A DNA stretch of 64,000 nt from Mycobacterium sp. HUMS_12744610 (GTDB taxonomy: Bacteria; Actinomycetota; Actinomycetes; Mycobacteriales; Mycobacteriaceae): the NCBI RefSeq assembly GCF_041206865.1, contig NZ_JBGEDP010000001.1, positions 2,852,001 to 2,916,000 of the forward strand, given 5' to 3'. The notes beneath the pieces were generated by a model, which saw nothing but the letters and a program-made list of their open reading frames with translations, did not search any database and was not told the DNA's origin. The position numbers were made by a program, and so were the translations under genes. Below, in pieces: positions 48,786 to 59,085 of the stretch (the first letter of the stretch is position 1; every line of letters starts with the position of its first letter).

Positions 48786-49156
48786 CTGAGGTATACCGGT
48801 CGCGCGGTCAGCTCGGTCTGTTCGGTGGGCCAACAGCGTGTGCGATCACCGGTGGCGGCAGGCCGCAACGACCTGTTCGGCTAGGCCGGCAACCTCCGGC
48901 CGGTCGACATACGCCGCGCCGTCGAGCGACCCCGCGCCCGTGGTAACCACCGCCCGGTCCAAAATTTTGACCTGTTTGCACCTGGATAAGTTGCGGTATC
49001 GAGTTCGCGGAGTGATCCTCACCTGCCGTCTCGCAGTCATGTGGGTCTGCCCTTTCCCATCGGGCACTCTTTTTCCCGCTCCGCGCTCAAAGTAGTTGAG
49101 GCACGCCGGCGCGTTGACTCTCGACACCTTGCAATGTAACAATCGTCCACGTAGGC
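48786..49156. other. Intergenic region after eccA5
   Basis: On the minus strand a short frame (48846-49142) ends KILDRAVVTTGAGSLDGAAY and then a ...AACRHR terminus, which looks like the tail of a lost gene, but its N-terminal part is not convincing. The right part is the 5' flank of the M-box and should hold the promoter for the riboswitch transcript. Confidence 0.4.
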
Positions 49157-49315
49157 ACCTCGCTAGGTGAGGCGTCCACGCGGATACAGGCCACTGACCT
49201 CGAACGTCGAAAGACGCCCAGGGTCAGGACAGCTCTTCCCGGCTTAAGGGTTGAGCCCAAGTGGCTTTCAGCTTTGGCTGAATACGCCGTGTGGTGCCAA
49301 AGCTCTGACGAGAGG
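49157..49315 (+). ncRNA. M-box (ykoK) magnesium riboswitch
   Basis: The sequence has the diagnostic M-box segments in order: CGCTAGGTGAGGC, GGATACAGGCCACTGACC, GAAAGACGCCCAGGGTCAGG, CTTAAGGG...AAGTGGCT, and TACGCCGTGTGGTGCCAAAG followed by CTCTGACGAG. These line up with the Bacillus mgtE M-box core. The P1 stem pairs CCTCG with CGAGAGG. The aptamer folds on Mg2+ and turns expression off. M. tuberculosis is reported to have an M-box before PE20 (Rv1806), and this one precedes the PE20-type gene. The expression platform is not an obvious intrinsic terminator. Confidence 0.93.
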
Positions 49316-49409
49316 GGTGCGGCTCTCGGGCTTTACGGCTCGGTCCACACTTCTGAAGTGCCCTGACGGCATCAGCGTATGCCCCGGCCGCGAGGAGGTG
49401 AGGACTGAA

Positions 49410-49484
49410 ATGAGCCCAGGCGATAGTCCGCATCCCGAGTTCGACGACCGTTTCGATCCGATCGTGGCCGCACTGAAACCCTGA
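49410..49484 (+). CDS. Leader ORF between the M-box and the PE20-type gene
   Basis: An ATG at 49410 follows a strong GAGGAGG (49392-49398) and opens 24 codons that begin MSPGDSPHPEFDDRFDP and end AALKP then TGA. Five Pro and five Asp/Glu fall in 24 residues, and Pro is the last residue before the stop. A GTG at 49398 is in frame. It is too short for a normal protein but suits a regulatory leader peptide whose translation could respond to Mg2+ and couple the riboswitch to downstream genes. Confidence 0.6.
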   Translation: MSPGDSPHPEFDDRFDPIVAALKP

Positions 49485-49663
49485 GCGAGTTCTGAATCCG
49501 GGTCACTTGCATGCTCTGACGATGACCGCCACAGATGTGCGTAGGGAATTTTCTTGCAATTCACTTGCATGTGACACCTAAGGATTGGGTAAGCTAAGTT
49601 CCCGAGTCGGGACTCCCGGGACCTCAGCAGCCCCCCGGTCGGAACGATTTTACACGTGCGATA

Positions 49664-49681
49664 GAAACGATTGTCATTTTC
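49664..49681. promoter_or_regulatory. Zur-like metalloregulator box
   Basis: GAAACGATTGTCATTTTC is an imperfect palindrome very like mycobacterial Zur (and Fur-family) sites. It is followed by TAGGCT, a possible -10. It lies 50 bp upstream of the PE20-type ATG. It would add zinc-dependent repression to the promoter feeding the PE-PPE genes. I cannot exclude another Fur-family member. Confidence 0.55.
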
Positions 49682-49730
49682 ATCTAGGCTGCCCCCGTCG
49701 GCCGCCTAGCGGCCTGTGAGGAGACTTGGA

Positions 49731-50030
49731 ATGTTGTTCGTTACCGCGCAGCCGGAATCGTTGGCCGCTGCTGCCAATCGCCTTCAGCAGATCGGTTCGA
49801 CGTTGGCTGGCGAGCACGCCGCCACCGCCCCGCCGATGACCGGGGTGGTACCTGCCGCCTCCGACATCGTGTCGATGCTGACGGCCGCCCAGTTCGCCCG
49901 GCATGCTCAGACCTTCCAGGCATTGAGCGCCCAGGCCGCCGAAATCCACGAGAATTTCGTGGCCACATTGGCGGCTAGCGCCGGGTCGTATGCCGCCACC
50001 GAAGCAGCCAACGCCGCCGCAACCCGATGA
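49731..50030 (+). CDS. PE family protein, PE20-type
   Basis: The 99-residue PE protein starts MLFVTAQPESLAAAANRLQQIGSTLAGEHAATAPPMTGVVPAASDIVS and ends with SYAATEAANAAATR (YxxxE signal). It diverges clearly from the PE18/19 copies. It stands first after the M-box, as PE20 does in M. tuberculosis, where PE20-PPE31 is linked to magnesium uptake. TGAGGAG precedes the ATG. The PPE partner begins 18 bp later. Confidence 0.92.
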   Translation: MLFVTAQPESLAAAANRLQQIGSTLAGEHAATAPPMTGVVPAASDIVSMLTAAQFARHAQTFQALSAQAAEIHENFVATLAASAGSYAATEAANAAATR

Positions 50031-50048: not shown

Positions 50049-51224
50049 ATGCTCGACTTCGCCGCACTGCCGCCCGAAATCAATTCCGCCAAAATGTATT
50101 CCGGTCCCGGATCGGCATCGATGCTGGCAGCCGCCGGGGCGTGGAACACGATCGCCGCCGAGATGCGCTCGGCGGCAACGTCCTACAACTCGGTGATCAC
50201 GGAATTGACGAGTAACGGTTGGCTGGGCCCGTCGTCGATGTCAATGCTGTCCGCGGCCACGCCATACCTGACATGGTTGGATACGGCCGCCGCCCAAGCC
50301 GAGCAGACCGCGGCCCAAGCTTTCGCGGCCGCAACCGCTTTCGAGTCGGCGTTCGCCGCGACGGTCCCGCCGCCCGTTGTCACCGCCAATCGCGCACAGT
50401 TGGCGATGTTGGTGGCCACAAACATCTTCGGCCAGAACACCCCCGCGATCGCGGCTAACGAGGCACAGTACGCGTCCATGTGGGCCCAAGATGCCGCTGC
50501 CATGAATGGTTACGCCAGCGACTCGACGGCGGCCAGTCAATTGGCACCGCTCTCCGCTCCGTCGAAGAGCACCCAGACCTACGGGGTTGCCAAGCAATCG
50601 GCGGCGGTCGCTAAAGCGACCCAGACGACAGGTCAAACCGTGCAATCGAACCTGTCCGCGGTAACGTCGACCGCCCCCAAGGCGGCCTCCGGGGAAGACT
50701 TTCTGTCATTGCTGTCGGGGATCTTCAGTGGCGCGAACAACTCGGCCGTGGGCACGTTCATGCAAGGCAACTACTTCAGCACGATGGTCGTGAACGGGGC
50801 TTTAGCGGGTGGACCGTTCAACCCGCAATTCCTCCTTGGGACCATCGCCGGTTTCAATTTCCTGTCCGCTGCCACGCAAGGCGGCGACCTGCTACCGGGC
50901 CTCGGCGACATCGCCTCGGCGACCGCCGAGGTCTCCCCGGCGGCAGCGCTCGGCGGTGTAAGTGCCCCGATCTCAGCGGCGGTTGGCCATGCCAACCTAG
51001 TCGGTGCAGTGTCGGTGCCTCCCGGTTGGGCTTCGGCGGCAGCGATCCAGCCAGCCGACACAGCGATTCCGGCTACCGGTCTCAGTGACATCGGATCGTC
51101 CAACGGCACGGGTGGTCCGGGCGGGTTCGCCGCACCCGTCGGAGGTGCGGCGGGGCGGCGACGCCCAATCCCCAAGTACGGGTTCCGCCCCGTCGTAATT
51201 TCTCGCCCTCCGGCGGCCGGATAA
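50049..51224 (+). CDS. PPE family protein, PPE31-type (PPE-SVP)
   Basis: The 391-residue protein starts [26 protein letters not shown], has [40 protein letters not shown], and the motif GAVSVPPGW. It ends [12 protein letters not shown]. It should pair with the PE20-type protein and be secreted through ESX-5 to act as an outer-membrane pore or importer. The position right behind an M-box and Zur-like site supports a metal-uptake role (inference from the PPE31 work in M. tuberculosis). Confidence 0.92.
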
Positions 51225-51260: not shown

Positions 51261-52472
51261 ATGCTAGATTTCGCAACGTTGCCGCCAGAGATCAATTCGG
51301 CCCGCATGTACTCAGGGCCGGGCTCGGCGTCGATTAGCGTCGCTGCCGCGGCCTGGAATCGCATCGCCACCGAGATGCGTTCGACCGCAGCCGCTTACAG
51401 CGCGGTAGTCACCGGGCTGACTGACGAGGCCTGGCTGGGACCTTCGTCGGGATTGATGGCGGCAGCGGCTGAACCGTATGTCGACTGGTTGGCCATCGCC
51501 GCTGCCCAAGCCGAGCAGGCCAGCGCCTCGGCCTCTGCGGCGGCGGCCGCCTTCGAAGCCGCTTTCGCAGCGACGGTACCCCCGGCGGCGATCACGGCGA
51601 ACCGCGCCCAACTGGCTAACCTGTTGGCCACCAACATGCTCGGCCAGAACGCCGCCGTAATAGCAGCGAACGAAGCTCAATACGCCGCGATGTGGGCGCA
51701 GGATGCCGCCGCGATGAATGGCTACGCCATGGCGTCGGCCGCGGCGACACAATTGGCGCCGTTGACGCCCCCCCCTTCCACCACCAACGCCAACGAGACG
51801 GCCGACCAAGCTAATGGGACCTCGGCGTCCTCCACGGCTCCGGCAGGGTCGACGTCCGGGCTCCTCGAGTGGCTGGGTATCGCGCCCAACACCAACAACT
51901 CCACGACAGGCTTGGCCGGACTGCTCAACTTTCTGGATGGAAACAACGGGTCATTCGTCGGAAGCTTCCTCAACGATGCGACGGTCGCAAACTTCTCGAA
52001 CGCCCTCACCACCAGCGGCTTGACGAATCCAACATCCGTCATCGATTCGGTGACCGCATACAGCTTTCTCTTCGCGACCCAAGGCGCCGCCTCGTTCGAT
52101 ATGTCCGACCTGGCCGCGGGGCTGGCGTTGACAGGGCCGATCGGGGTGGCCCCGGGTCTGCCGAGCCTGTCGGCCGCGGCCGTGTCGGCTCAGCTCGGGC
52201 ACGCCAGCCTGGTCGGGGCCGTATCGGTGCCCCCGGCCTGGGGTGCGAGTGGGGCGACGGTCAACCCGGTCGCAACGGCCACGAGCCGCATCGGTGCCGG
52301 GGCCTACCACAGCCTGAGCAACGCCACCCCCATGGTGATGGAAGAGACCGGACCCGTGGGCATGCCCGGGCTGCCCCTGGCAGGCATGACCGGGCCGCAC
52401 GAGGACGAGTTCAGCGCCCCGATCTACGGATTCCGCCCCCGCATCATCACGCGGCCGCCTGCAGCGGGTTGA
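51261..52472 (+). CDS. PPE family protein (PPE-SVP), PPE31/32-like
   Basis: The 403-residue protein starts [26 protein letters not shown], with [40 protein letters not shown] and GAVSVPPAW. The C-terminal end is [12 protein letters not shown]. The N-terminal domain is close to that of the preceding PPE (shared [19 protein letters not shown]), suggesting local duplication, while the middle differs. It is 36 bp after that gene and cotranscribed. An Asn/Thr-rich linker follows the PPE domain. Confidence 0.92.
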
Positions 52473-54521: not shown

Positions 54522-55781
54522 GTGATAGATTTCGGCGCGCTTCCGCCGGAGATCAACTCTGGGCGGATGTATGTCGGGCCCGGGTCGGGGCCGATGATCG
54601 CGGCGGCGGCGGCCTGGGACGACCTGGCCGCCGAACTGCAGTCGACGGCCGCGTCGTACAGCTCCACGGTCGAGGGTTTGACCGTCGGGCCGTGGACGGG
54701 TCCCTCCTCGATCGCGATGGCGGCCGCGGCCATCCCCTACGTTTCGTGGATCAGTGCCACCGGCTCCAGGGCCGAGCAGGCGGCTGCCCAGGCGAAAATC
54801 GCCGCCGCCGCCTACGAGACGGCCTTCGCCGCGACGGTCCCGCCGCCGGTGATCGTGGCCAATCGCACACTGCTCATGACTTTGATTGCGACCAACATCC
54901 TGGGGCAGAACACCCCGGCGATCGCCGCCACCGAAGCCCAGTACGCCGAGCTGTGGGCCCAGGACGCCGCCGCCATGTACGCCTACGCTGGCTCGTCGGC
55001 GGCCGCCTCGCAGCTGATCCCGTTCCTCGAGCCGCCGCGCACGACCACCGACTCGGCCAGCCCGCTGCAAGCCGCCGCCGTCAGCCAGTCCGGTACCTCG
55101 AGTGGCCTCAACGTGGGCACCCAACTGTCCCAGCTGACCAGCGCCGTGCCGAACGCCCTGCAGAGCCTGGCCTCTGGGGCGACGAGTAACGCGACGACGC
55201 CGGGACTCACGCTGCCGTCGACCCTGCCCAACGCGCTGACCAACTGGAACACCATCTTCGGCGAATTGACCGGCATCTATTCGCCCCAGGCGTGGAGCAC
55301 CATCCCCGGTGGCCCGTTCCTGTCTTTCGGGCAGGCATACGCCTGGGGTCAGAACGGGCAGGGCGCCGCCGCGTATTTGGCCGGCCCCAAAGCGATCTCC
55401 GGCGCGCTGGCGCCGCTGACCAGCGGCGCCGTCAAGCCCATGCTGAGCTCCGCCGTCGGCGGCGCGCCGGTTTCGGCGTCGATGGGCAGGGCGGCGCTGG
55501 TGGGGAGCATGTCGGTGCCGCAGGGCTGGACCGAGGCCGCGCCGGCGATCAGGACACTCGCCTCGGTGTTCCCCAACATCGCGGCCGCACCGACCGCCTC
55601 GCTGGCCCCCGAGGGCGGCGTCTTCGGCCAGATGGCCCTGTCGAGCCTGGCCGGGCGCGCCATGGCGGCCGGGGCGACGTACTCCGGAGGAGGTGCCGTG
55701 GCGACCGGCTCGCTGGGCGGCGTGATCGAAGCCGAGGCGGCCACGGCCACCATCATCGTGATCCCGGTCCTGGAGGACTGA
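54522..55781 (+). CDS. PPE family protein, PPE32-type (PPE-SVP)
   Basis: The 419-residue protein starts [26 protein letters not shown], with [40 protein letters not shown] and [17 protein letters not shown]. Unlike the others it ends with a hydrophobic [21 protein letters not shown] instead of the usual RPPxAG tail, as PPE32 does. The start is GTG after GGAGGTAGACAG. It leads a second PPE pair (with PPE33-type) and probably belongs to the metal-responsive set through mgtC. Confidence 0.9.
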
Positions 55782-55839: not shown

Positions 55840-57024
55840 ATGTTCTACGGAGCCTTTCCACCGGAGTTCAACTCCGGGCGCATGTACGCCGGGCCGGGAG
55901 CCGAGTCCTTGGTGGCCGCGGCGGCGGCCTGGGACACCCTGGCCGCCGAACTGCAGTCCACCGTCGCCGCCTACTCGTCGGTGATCGACACGCTGAGCAG
56001 CGGGCCCTGGGTGGGACCGTCGTCGATGAGCATGGTGGCCGCGGTGACGCCGTACCTGTCCTGGATGCAGACCACCGCCACTCAGGCCGCACACACCTCC
56101 AACCAGGCCACCGCGGCGGCGGCCGCCTACGAGACGGCGTTCGCGTCGACGGTGCCGCCGGAGGAGGTCGCGGCCAACCGCACCCAGCTGGCGTCGCTGG
56201 TGGCGACCAACGTCTTCGGGCAGAACACCGCCGCGATCGCGGCCACCGAGGCCCAGTACGCCGAGATGTGGGCCCAGGATGCCCTGGCGATGGACACCTA
56301 CGTCGCGTCGGCGGAGGCGGCAACGAGCCGGCTGACCGCGTTCACCGAGGCGCCGACGACCACCAACGGCTCGGCGTCGACGACGCAGGCCGCCGCGGTC
56401 GGCGCAGCCGGCGGCACACCGGCGGCCAACGCGGCGGCGACCCTAGGCTCGATCATTCCCCCGTTCAACCCGGCGAACGGGCCGCTCGGCTACCTCGCCG
56501 GGCTCGCCACCTGGTACCACACCCTCGGAACCAACCTCCTGAACATCGTTCCGAACGGGGGCACCTGGTACGCGGGGCTGTACAACGCCGTCAAGGTTCC
56601 TGTCGGCATCACCACGACGTTCAACGACATCGGGCTGCTCATCAACTTCCCGCTGTCACAGTGGCTCAAGTTCGCCCCGCCCATCCCGTACGGGGCCCTC
56701 CCCAAGGACGCGCTGGGGGCCGGGCTCGGCGCGCTGGGCTTCGGGCGTGGCACCCTGTACAACGCGGTCAGCCCGGTGGCGGCGAGCCTGGGCCGCGGCA
56801 CCCTGGTCGGAGCGCTGACGGTGCCGCCCAGCTGGGCCTCCGCCACCCCGGCAATCCGGACGGTCGCCGCCGCGTTGACAGCCGCCGGGCCGGAGGCGGT
56901 GCCGGCGGCCGCCCTGGGCGCGGGTGGGCTGCTCGGCTCGATGTCGGTGGCGGGCATGCTCGGCAGCGCCTTCGGCGCGGGCGCCCCACCGTGGCGGGCC
57001 GTGCCGCCGTCCGCGGGCGCCTGA
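55840..57024 (+). CDS. PPE family protein, PPE33-type
   Basis: The 394-residue protein starts [25 protein letters not shown], where PPEFNSG replaces the usual PPEINSG. It has [40 protein letters not shown] and [17 protein letters not shown]. The end is [14 protein letters not shown]. It starts 58 bp after the PPE32-type stop. A 16-codon frame (55787-55837) fills that gap and may be chance. A small gene overlaps its 3' end in another frame. Confidence 0.9.
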
Positions 57025-58374: not shown

Positions 58375-59085
58375 ATGCAGACGCTGAGCGTTGCCGATTT
58401 CGCGCTCCGGCTGGCCGTCGGGGTCGGCTGCGGTGCCCTCATCGGTCTGGAGCGGCAATGGCGGGCGCGCCGGGCCGGGCTGCGCACCAACGCGCTCGTC
58501 GCCGCCGGTGCGACCCTGTTCGTGCTCTACGCGGCCGCCACCGAGGACACCAGCGCCACCCGGGTCGCGTCCTATGTCGTGTCCGGGATCGGGTTCCTGG
58601 GCGGTGGGGTGATCCTGCGCGAGGGGGTCAACGTCCGCGGGCTCAACACCGCGGCCACCCTGTGGTGTTCGGCGGCGGTCGGTGTACTGGCCGCGTCGGG
58701 ACACCTGACCTTCACGCTGATCGCCACCGGCACCGTCCTCGCGATCCACGTGTTCGGGCGCCCGCTCGGGCGGCTGATCGATCGTGACGAGAACGTCGAA
58801 GACGACGAGGGCCTCCAGCCGTACCTGCTACAGGTGACCTGCCGCCCCAAATCGGAGACGTACGCCCGCGCCCAGGTCGTGCAGCACGCCAGCAGCAACG
58901 ACATGACGCTGCGCGGTATCCACGCCCGCCAGACCGGCGACGACGAGATCACCCTGAGCGCGCATCTGCTCATGGACGGCCACACCCCGGCCAAGCTCGA
59001 GCGGTTGGTGGCCGAGCTGTCCCTGCAGCCGGGAGTCCGCACGGTGCAGTGGTACGCGGGGGAGACCGCGCAGCAGCCGGACTGA
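58375..59085 (+). CDS. mgtC: MgtC/SapB-family membrane protein
   Basis: The 236-residue protein has the MgtC N-terminal membrane domain ([88 protein letters not shown]) and a C-terminal ACT-like cytosolic domain (about residues 150-236). MgtC is needed for growth at low Mg2+ and in macrophages, where it affects membrane energetics and phosphate homeostasis. The ATG at 58375 matches the family N-terminus. It corresponds to Rv1811. It lies 9 kb downstream of the M-box, in the same direction. Confidence 0.94.
   Translation: MQTLSVADFALRLAVGVGCGALIGLERQWRARRAGLRTNALVAAGATLFVLYAAATEDTSATRVASYVVSGIGFLGGGVILREGVNVRGLNTAATLWCSAAVGVLAASGHLTFTLIATGTVLAIHVFGRPLGRLIDRDENVEDDEGLQPYLLQVTCRPKSETYARAQVVQHASSNDMTLRGIHARQTGDDEITLSAHLLMDGHTPAKLERLVAELSLQPGVRTVQWYAGETAQQPD

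What the first reader, a model, noticed from the sequence alone, without database searches (positions are those of the whole stretch)
49157..49484. M-box riboswitch followed by a Pro/Asp-rich leader peptide: a possible two-tier Mg2+ sensor for PE/PPE genes
The M-box core is clear by motif. About 95 bp after it, a GAGGAGG-led 24-codon ORF begins MSPGDSPHPEFDDRFDP and ends in a Pro codon before TGA. Acidic and Pro-rich nascent N-termini destabilise ribosomes at low Mg2+, as shown for the mgtL leader of enterobacteria, and Pro before a stop slows termination. No intrinsic terminator is visible. I infer that translation of this leader reports Mg2+ and couples, perhaps through Rho or mRNA exposure, to expression of the downstream PE/PPE genes. 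The combination of an M-box with an mgtL-like leader in one mycobacterial 5' region is the most novel regulatory layout in the window.
Basis: partly seen in the sequence, partly recalled or inferred. Interest (0 to 1): 0.8.

Follow-up and report, generated by a model that had tools for sequence, protein, structure and literature searches.

The report
Magnesium riboswitch with self-folding mini-gene
A mycobacterial magnesium-sensing RNA sits in front of a tiny gene and PE/PPE genes, a layout already published for the tuberculosis bacterium; the proposed magnesium-sensing peptide is not supported, but relatives suggest that the tiny gene's own RNA can fold back over its start signal.

Summary
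The M-box is real (RF00380, window 49152-49323, 148.6 bits), and so is the 24-codon ORF (49410-49484). The layout is not new: PMC12810186 (RNA 2026) describes the orthologous pe20 leader of M. tuberculosis, with M-box, uORF1, conserved uORF2 (Rv1805A), a translational platform and Rho-dependent termination.

The mgtL-like reading is not supported. Of 139 distinct uORF2 peptides, only the window's and its sister's have 5 acidic residues (the other 137: 1-4, median 2); 2 of 139 end in Pro, and the sister's does not. The mgtL logic also has the opposite sign to the published main model.

In relatives, codons 2-8 are conserved as peptide (pN/pS 0.06-0.24) but codons 9-end are not (0.82-1.45). That tail can pair with its own SD-AUG region: a 10-bp start-codon stem, 95.3% of cells paired in 41 leaders, stronger than in GC3-matched synonymous recodings in three groups. 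The two-sided changes fall almost wholly between two groups, so they are few events. In the window alone the stem is possible (10 of 11 pairs) but not significant. Its function is inferred.

The parts
49114..49143 (+). promoter-like site (TTGACT, 18 nt, TG-n-AACAAT)
   Evidence: consensus scan, 1 found against 0.1 in shuffles; not proof of function
49152..49323 (+). M-box riboswitch aptamer
   Evidence: RF00380, 148.6 bits
49310..49319 (+). SD1 and GTG of uORF1, within the 3' strand of the aptamer's closing stem (anti-anti-SD of the published model)
   Evidence: sequence; alignment to RF00380; role from PMC12810186
49317..49484 (+). uORF1 reading frame, here open in frame through uORF2 (55 codons)
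   Evidence: the frame is not conserved (9 of 141 leaders fused)
49337..49354 (+). candidate upstream anti-SD/anti-TIR strand
   Evidence: pairs with SD2-AUG in the predicted fold, but the fold is no better than shuffles (z -0.83)
49368..49383 (+). conserved hairpin just before SD2
   Evidence: 5 pairs, 100% of cells in 41 leaders, 2 pairs with two-sided changes
49392..49401 (+). SD2
   Evidence: sequence; its core GGAGGTGA was part of the pattern used to collect relatives, so its conservation is not an independent result
49402..49412 (+). 5' strand of the start-codon stem (GGACTGAAATG, includes the ATG of uORF2)
   Evidence: coordinates; pairing
49410..49484 (+). uORF2 (orthologue of Rv1805A by position), 24 codons
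   Evidence: leader 88% identical to that of the sister genome over its whole length
49449..49459 (+). 3' strand of the start-codon stem, inside uORF2 (CGTTTCGATCC)
   Evidence: 10 of 11 pairs in the window; conserved in relatives
49731..50030 (+). PE gene (pe20 position)
   Evidence: PF00934 E 2.7e-30
50049..51224 (+). PPE gene
   Evidence: PF00823 E 1.9e-67
51261..52472 (+). PPE gene
   Evidence: PF00823 E 1.3e-59
58411..58773 (+). MgtC domain
   Evidence: PF02308 E 2.0e-33 at G000:C1:2910411-2910773

Best explanation
This is the orthologue, in a Mycobacterium that appears close to M. helveticum, of the published pe20 M-box leader. Inferred working, after PMC12810186: with Mg2+ the aptamer closes and holds SD1, the leader then favours sequestration of SD2 and the uORF2 start, and Rho ends transcription; at low Mg2+ the leader opens, uORF2 is translated and transcription runs on into PE/PPE. 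Added here: uORF2 is not an mgtL-type sensing peptide. In relatives its second half is mainly an RNA strand that can pair back on its own SD2-AUG region, so the start site has two possible partners, one upstream (the published anti-SD) and one inside its own coding sequence. Only about codons 2-8 are held as peptide. Shown by computation: homology, conservation pattern, complementarity of the in-ORF strand kept beyond what the peptide demands. Inferred: that the stem forms in the cell, tunes initiation on uORF2 and so the Rho decision.
For: RF00380 hit. Same order M-box/uORF2/PE/PPE with mgtC further down as in PMC12810186. pN/pS of codons 2-8 is 0.16, 0.06 and 0.24 in three groups (63, 28, 20 sequences of one length each; the 24-codon window ORF is not among them) against 1.37, 0.82 and 1.45 for codons 9-end. 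Start stem: 407 of 460 cells paired in 46 leaders, 0 of 2000 partner shuffles reach this, slid registers 33-71%; stem alone 95.3%, stem plus hairpin 96.9% of 613 cells in 41 leaders, slid 33-54%, covariation score 0.367 against 0.269 (0 of 500 shuffles), two-sided A-U/G-C changes at two stem pairs; predicted 30-pair structure 94.1%, slid 31-46%. Partner shuffles within the pe20 group alone: 10 of 2000 reach. Tail pairing to the start region is stronger than in GC3-matched synonymous recodings, 0 of 60 sets as low in each of three groups; unmatched recodings 2, 0 and 0 of 60. rv1535-type: GGGACG/CGUCCC, first five pairs in 36-37 of 37. No terminator-like site.
Against: In the window itself the stem is not the predicted minimum-energy fold, and its tail pairs no better than recodings (24 of 60 GC3-matched, 15 of 60 unmatched as low). 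The two-sided changes are A-U in the pe20 group and G-C in the SRSGSG group, so they may be single events; within the SRSGSG group 586 of 2000 partner shuffles reach the observed value, and within groups own partners are hardly or not better than those of group mates by duplex energy. Number of pairs with two-sided changes (212 of 500) and further pair types (239 of 500) do not exceed shuffles. Folding all 87 leaders in one mixed alignment gave 5 pairs, no covariation, and not this stem; it appears when groups are folded apart with RIBOSUM scoring. PMC12810186 reports about 500 Miller units for an SD2-uORF2 fusion without the upstream anti-SD, so the stem cannot block initiation strongly there. 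Of four copies without an M-box, L056 and L067 have their best partner elsewhere.
Confidence: 0.6

Rival explanations
1. The published model is the whole story: only the upstream anti-SD competes with SD1 and SD2, uORF2 encodes a functional small peptide, and the in-ORF complementarity has no function.
For: PMC12810186: deletion of the anti-SD raises uORF2 expression about twofold, and there is a paralogue without M-box. The upstream segment pairs with SD2-AUG better than shuffled upstream sequence in two of three groups (0 of 60 each; third group 5 of 60). Codons 2-8 conserved as peptide. Few compensatory events for the in-ORF stem.
Against: Within groups, swapped upstream partners pair as well as own ones (60, 45 and 22 of 60 swaps as good), and between groups there is no matching either, so I find no covariation for the upstream strand; it need not show any, since SD2 hardly varies. 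The uORF2 tail is not conserved as peptide and pairs more strongly than synonymous recodings.
Confidence: 0.26
2. mgtL-like sensor: the acidic, Pro-rich nascent chain destabilises ribosomes at low Mg2+ and this reports Mg2+ to Rho.
For: Window peptide: 5 acidic and 5 Pro in 24 residues, 9 D/E/P in positions 2-17, more than any of 137 relatives. Pro 3, 7, 9 and Asp 5 recall the alternating Pro of mgtL (PMC6460261 passages).
Against: Acidic tail only in the window species and its sister among 139 peptides; final Pro absent from the sister. No acidic residue at positions 2-4, whereas the mgtL motif is EPDP with Glu2 and Asp4 (PMC11282234 passages). The sign of the mgtL mechanism is opposite to the permissive role of uORF2 in the published main model.
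Confidence: 0.06
3. uORF2 is a standalone small-protein or dual-function RNA gene that happens to have been captured behind M-boxes.
For: Of 16 loci tested by Infernal 5 gave no RF00380 hit; one of these (L131) ends about 100 bases upstream of uORF2, which leaves L054, L056, L067, L072. L056 has no same-strand ORF of 90 aa or more in a longest-first non-overlapping list for the 2.4 kb that follow. Rv0115A in PMC12810186. Length 24-26 codons in 136 of 147 ORFs.
Against: In 139 of 141 leaders with an SD1-like site by regex this lies 88-116 bases before uORF2, as behind an M-box. No phenotype for Rv1805A in the biofilm test of PMC12810186.
Confidence: 0.07

Closest known systems
pe20 M-box / Rv1805A leader of M. 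tuberculosis (PMC12810186)
   Same: M-box, SD1 at its end, poorly conserved uORF1, conserved uORF2 with strong SD2, PE/PPE genes, mgtC further down, no intrinsic terminator
   Different: uORF1 and uORF2 are one open frame here; uORF2 tail is acidic here; pairing of uORF2's tail with its own start is not mentioned in the text I read (parts 1-4 of 6; by the outline the rest is references and an author note; supplement not seen)
ykoK M-box of Bacillus subtilis (RF00380 type)
   Same: aptamer
   Different: no intrinsic terminator here; translational/Rho platform reported for the mycobacterial orthologue
mgtL/mgtA leader of enterobacteria (PMC6460261, PMC11282234, passages only)
   Same: Mg2+-responsive leader with a short Pro-containing ORF and Rho
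   Different: EPDP motif and four alternating Pro there; full translation means OFF there, ON in the model for this leader
uORF-coupled B12 riboswitches of M. tuberculosis (PMC11260477, search listing and abstract start only)
   Same: riboswitch acting with a uORF
   Different: other ligand and genes

Membership tests
M-box riboswitch (RF00380) | match of sequence and structure above the curated score | tested here: met
   148.6 bits against 44, full length
M-box riboswitch (RF00380) | Mg2+-dependent folding and regulation | not testable with these tools
   PMC12810186 cites Mg2+-dependent control in the M. tuberculosis leader
pe20-type M-box / Rv1805A leader | M-box upstream of PE/PPE genes with uORF2 (strong SD2, conserved N-terminus) | tested here: met
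pe20-type M-box / Rv1805A leader | upstream anti-SD that pairs with SD2 | tested here: inconclusive
   pairing possible; energy z -0.83; better than shuffled upstream sequence in two of three groups, no covariation
pe20-type M-box / Rv1805A leader | Rho-dependent termination in the leader | not testable with these tools
   no intrinsic terminator found; Rho shown for M. tuberculosis in PMC12810186
mgtL-type leader peptide | N-terminal acidic/Pro destabilising motif conserved in relatives | tested here: not met
   acidic tail in 2 of 139 peptides; no D/E at positions 2-4
mgtL-type leader peptide | drop-off at low Mg2+ turns the downstream gene on | not testable with these tools
   sign is opposite to the role of uORF2 in the published main model

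The most novel reading that the evidence does not exclude
The hairpin, SD2 and first two thirds of uORF2 form a second, self-contained RNA switch behind the M-box: uORF2's coding sequence holds its own start site, and the near-invariant AGUCC of codons 6-7 also pairs with SD2, crossing the start stem as a pseudoknot. It would be a two-tier regulator with RNA, not the peptide, as the second tier, and it could also work in copies without an M-box.
Probability: 0.2. Interest if true: 0.65.

Novelty: new variant of a known kind. Interest (0 to 1): 0.4.

Why it matters
The role of Rv1805A, the conserved uORF2, is left open in PMC12810186. The pattern found here gives a testable reason for part of its conservation: the tail behaves as an RNA strand complementary to the start site, and only the first codons look like peptide. 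Fusions made at the end of uORF2 would carry this strand, shorter ones would not (inference).

Tried and rejected
mgtL-like peptide: rejected on conservation and sign. uORF1 as a conserved peptide or fixed translational coupling: rejected; its frame relative to uORF2 is mixed in 141 leaders picked by regex (43 stop at the A-TGA overlapping the uORF2 start, 29 at the TGA inside SD2, 51 stop before SD2, 9 fused in frame, 9 elsewhere). Energy of the upstream anti-SD fold as evidence: rejected, z -0.83. AT-rich inverted repeat before PE as a Zur box (my recollection of such boxes): one match in the genome within 3 mismatches, itself; a search for S18 genes meant for comparison was not followed up. 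Homologue search by the 24-aa peptide in 61 genomes: outside the window only E 0.18 or worse. Hairpin inside the loop (codons 5-9): 87.3% of cells with losses, and the Asp5 wobble base is not tied to Tyr8; not claimed.

Rows dropped before counts: only leaders with the SD2 plus [Asp/Asn]-x-Pro pattern entered; of the 30 loci fetched by M-box score (L005-L034) 26 had a uORF2 and L011, L012, L026, L032 did not. At codon 6 the pattern admitted AGN, TCN, TGN, ACN, CCN, CGN. Rows at 88% identity or more were thinned from 169 to 87. One search used one ORF length per group. One search left out L001, L185, L186 (spacer length) and one gapped row; searches left out the rv1535-type and ten divergent rows (L054, L056, L058, L067, L070, L072, L092, L136, L225, L227) and added L184.

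Full report
Observation. The window's M-box is a full-length RF00380 match, 49152-49323. The short ORF at 49410-49484 is as described, with SD GAGGAGGTGA at 49392. A promoter-like site lies at 49114-49143 and no terminator-like site in 49000-49760. The next genes are PE 49731-50030 and PPE 50049-51224 and 51261-52472; upstream lies an EccA-type T7SS ATPase gene. The ORFs 54522-55781 and 55840-57024 begin like PPE proteins by eye (not scanned). An MgtC domain lies at 58411-58773. The genome is 6.4 Mb, larger than that of the tuberculosis complex (4.4 Mb, recalled). Its nearest leader, 88% identical over the whole 589 bases, is in genome G165, which has a contig of 45323 bases like NZ_VMQU01000034 of M. 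helveticum; that identification is inferred.

What is in print. One search found PMC12810186; I read parts 1-4 of 6. It treats the orthologous M. tuberculosis leader: two uORFs, a translational platform with anti-SD and anti-anti-SD, Rho-dependent termination, uORF2 named Rv1805A, a paralogue without M-box (Rv0115A), no known function. The word mgtL does not occur in it. A search for two of mgtL, Mycobacterium and Mbox gave 25 papers, of which the 15 listed do not join mgtL with a mycobacterial M-box in title or abstract start. Of 19 papers with Rv0115A, Rv1805A or Rv1535 only PMC12810186 holds Rv1805A. So the layout is known; the mgtL analogy I did not find in print.

Family of uORF2. M-boxes are in 99 of 198 genomes of the genus sampled; an SD2-uORF2 pattern in 72 of 198. 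Peptides fall into three main groups: rv1535-type MSSxDSPxR..., SRSGSG-type MSPGDSPYPKSVLSRSGSGI..., and pe20-type MSPGDSPYPRSTTISFRSDPGA.... The window and its sister have EFDDRFDP/EFDDHFDP where the others have the Ser/Arg-rich stretch. Among 139 distinct peptides these two alone have 5 acidic residues; the other 137 range 1-4 with median 2 and median net charge +1; 2 of 139 end in Pro. That removes the conservation on which an mgtL-like role would rest. A sign argument adds to it: full translation of mgtL keeps its Rho terminator in force (PMC11282234 passages), while uORF2 translation is the permissive state in the main model of PMC12810186; the paper also offers a model in which uORF2 is not decisive.

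Coding or RNA. Codons 2-8 show pN/pS of 0.16 (63 sequences), 0.06 (28) and 0.24 (20); codons 9 to the end 1.37, 0.82 and 1.45. Shifted frames of codons 2-8 give pN above pS in all six cases. For the tail, 4 of 6 shifted frames have a lower pN/pS than the true frame. Third positions are fixed where amino acids vary, for example codons 11-15, 17 and 18 of the pe20 group. Position 6 is Ser in 144 of 147 distinct ORFs and then AGT every time; Ser2 is AGT in 140 of 144. AGT is 10 of 195 Ser codons in six window ORFs.

The stem. The SD-AUG spacer with the start codon is complementary to a strand in about codons 13-17: pe20-type GAGCGAAAUG with CAUUUCGUUC, SRSGSG-type GGGCGAGAUG with a GUCUUGUCCC stretch, rv1535-type GGGACG with CGUCCC (not reaching the AUG), window GGACUGAAAUG with CGUUUCGAUCC (10 of 11). 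On 46 non-rv1535 leaders 407 of 460 cells are standard pairs; partner shuffles average 85.1% and none of 2000 reaches 88.5%; slid registers give 33-71%. On 41 leaders the stem alone has 95.3% and stem plus upstream hairpin 96.9%, slid 33-54%, 42 cells with two-sided changes against 17.2 in shuffles, covariation score above all 500 shuffles. A predicted extension that also takes in SD2 and the GGCC before it brings the whole to 94.1%. I first saw the stem by eye in these sequences, so the slid control favours it to some extent. The synonymous control does not depend on a register: tails (codons 10-22) bind the start region more strongly than GC3-matched recodings in all three groups (0 of 60 sets as low in each); with unmatched recodings 2, 0 and 0 of 60 sets were as low.

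How much covariation. One search splits the 41 leaders: pair 47-106 is A-U in 24 of 26 pe20-type and G-C in 14 of 15 SRSGSG-type; pair 53-101 is A-U in 19 of 26 and G-C in 10 of 15. So the two-sided changes are mostly one difference between two groups. Within the pe20 group 10 of 2000 partner shuffles reach the observed pairing (mean 92.9%, observed 94.6%); within the SRSGSG group 586 of 2000. Duplex energies say the same: own partners are hardly or not better than those of group mates. The support is therefore complementarity kept in three groups, two between-group compensations and the synonymous control, not many independent events.

Results against. The tool's fold of the mixed 87-row alignment did not give this stem. 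In the window the minimum-energy fold is another one, in which GGACU of the spacer pairs with AGUCC of codons 6-7, and the window's tail alone is not better than synonymous recodings (24 of 60 and 15 of 60 as low). Of four copies without an M-box (no RF00380 hit in the locus) L072 and L054 have the best partner near the usual place, L056 and L067 elsewhere. The published SD2-uORF2 fusion is well expressed, so the stem is at most a tuning element in that assay.

Mechanism. Most likely the leader works as published. The in-ORF strand gives the start site a second partner that exists only after RNA polymerase has passed about codon 17; a ribosome that has initiated would open it. This could delay initiation on uORF2 and so set the time in which Rho can act. 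That last step is inference. The AGT constancy is unexplained; pairing of SD2 with AGUCC was predicted once, on columns that hardly vary, and cannot be tested by covariation; that it would cross the start stem as a pseudoknot is my inference.

Novelty. The finding as given is an orthologue of a published system. The self-pairing uORF2 is not in the text I read of that paper, and a search that required six terms gave two papers, neither about it by title or abstract start. I call it a new variant of a known kind, with moderate interest.

Noticed in passing
window 49317-49484: uORF1 and uORF2 form one open frame of 55 codons in this species; of 141 leaders compared 9, this one included, are fused in frame.
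   Followed up: yes
uORF2 codons 2 and 6 (window 49413-49415, 49425-49427): Ser6 is AGT in 144 of 144 ORFs with Ser there, Ser2 AGT in 140 of 144, though AGT is a rare Ser codon in window genes. The window itself has AGC at codon 2. Cause unknown.
   Followed up: partly
window 49660-49684: AT-rich imperfect inverted repeat between uORF2 and PE, nearly all of it identical in the sister genome and similar in L185; no other copy of its core within 3 mismatches in the genome.
   Followed up: partly
L058 (Nocardia seriolae contig of 3863 bases), L054 (Actinomycetes MAG): uORF2-like element in records not named Mycobacterium; L058 has a partial M-box at its contig edge. PMC12810186 calls the peptide specific for mycobacteria. 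Contamination not excluded.
   Followed up: no
L056, L067, L072: uORF2 element with no RF00380 hit in the locus; L056 has no same-strand ORF of 90 aa or more after it for 2.4 kb in a longest-first non-overlapping list.
   Followed up: partly
L003 (G000:C1:5863416-5863611): third M-box of this genome; the uORF2 pattern has only two matches in the genome, neither near it.
   Followed up: no
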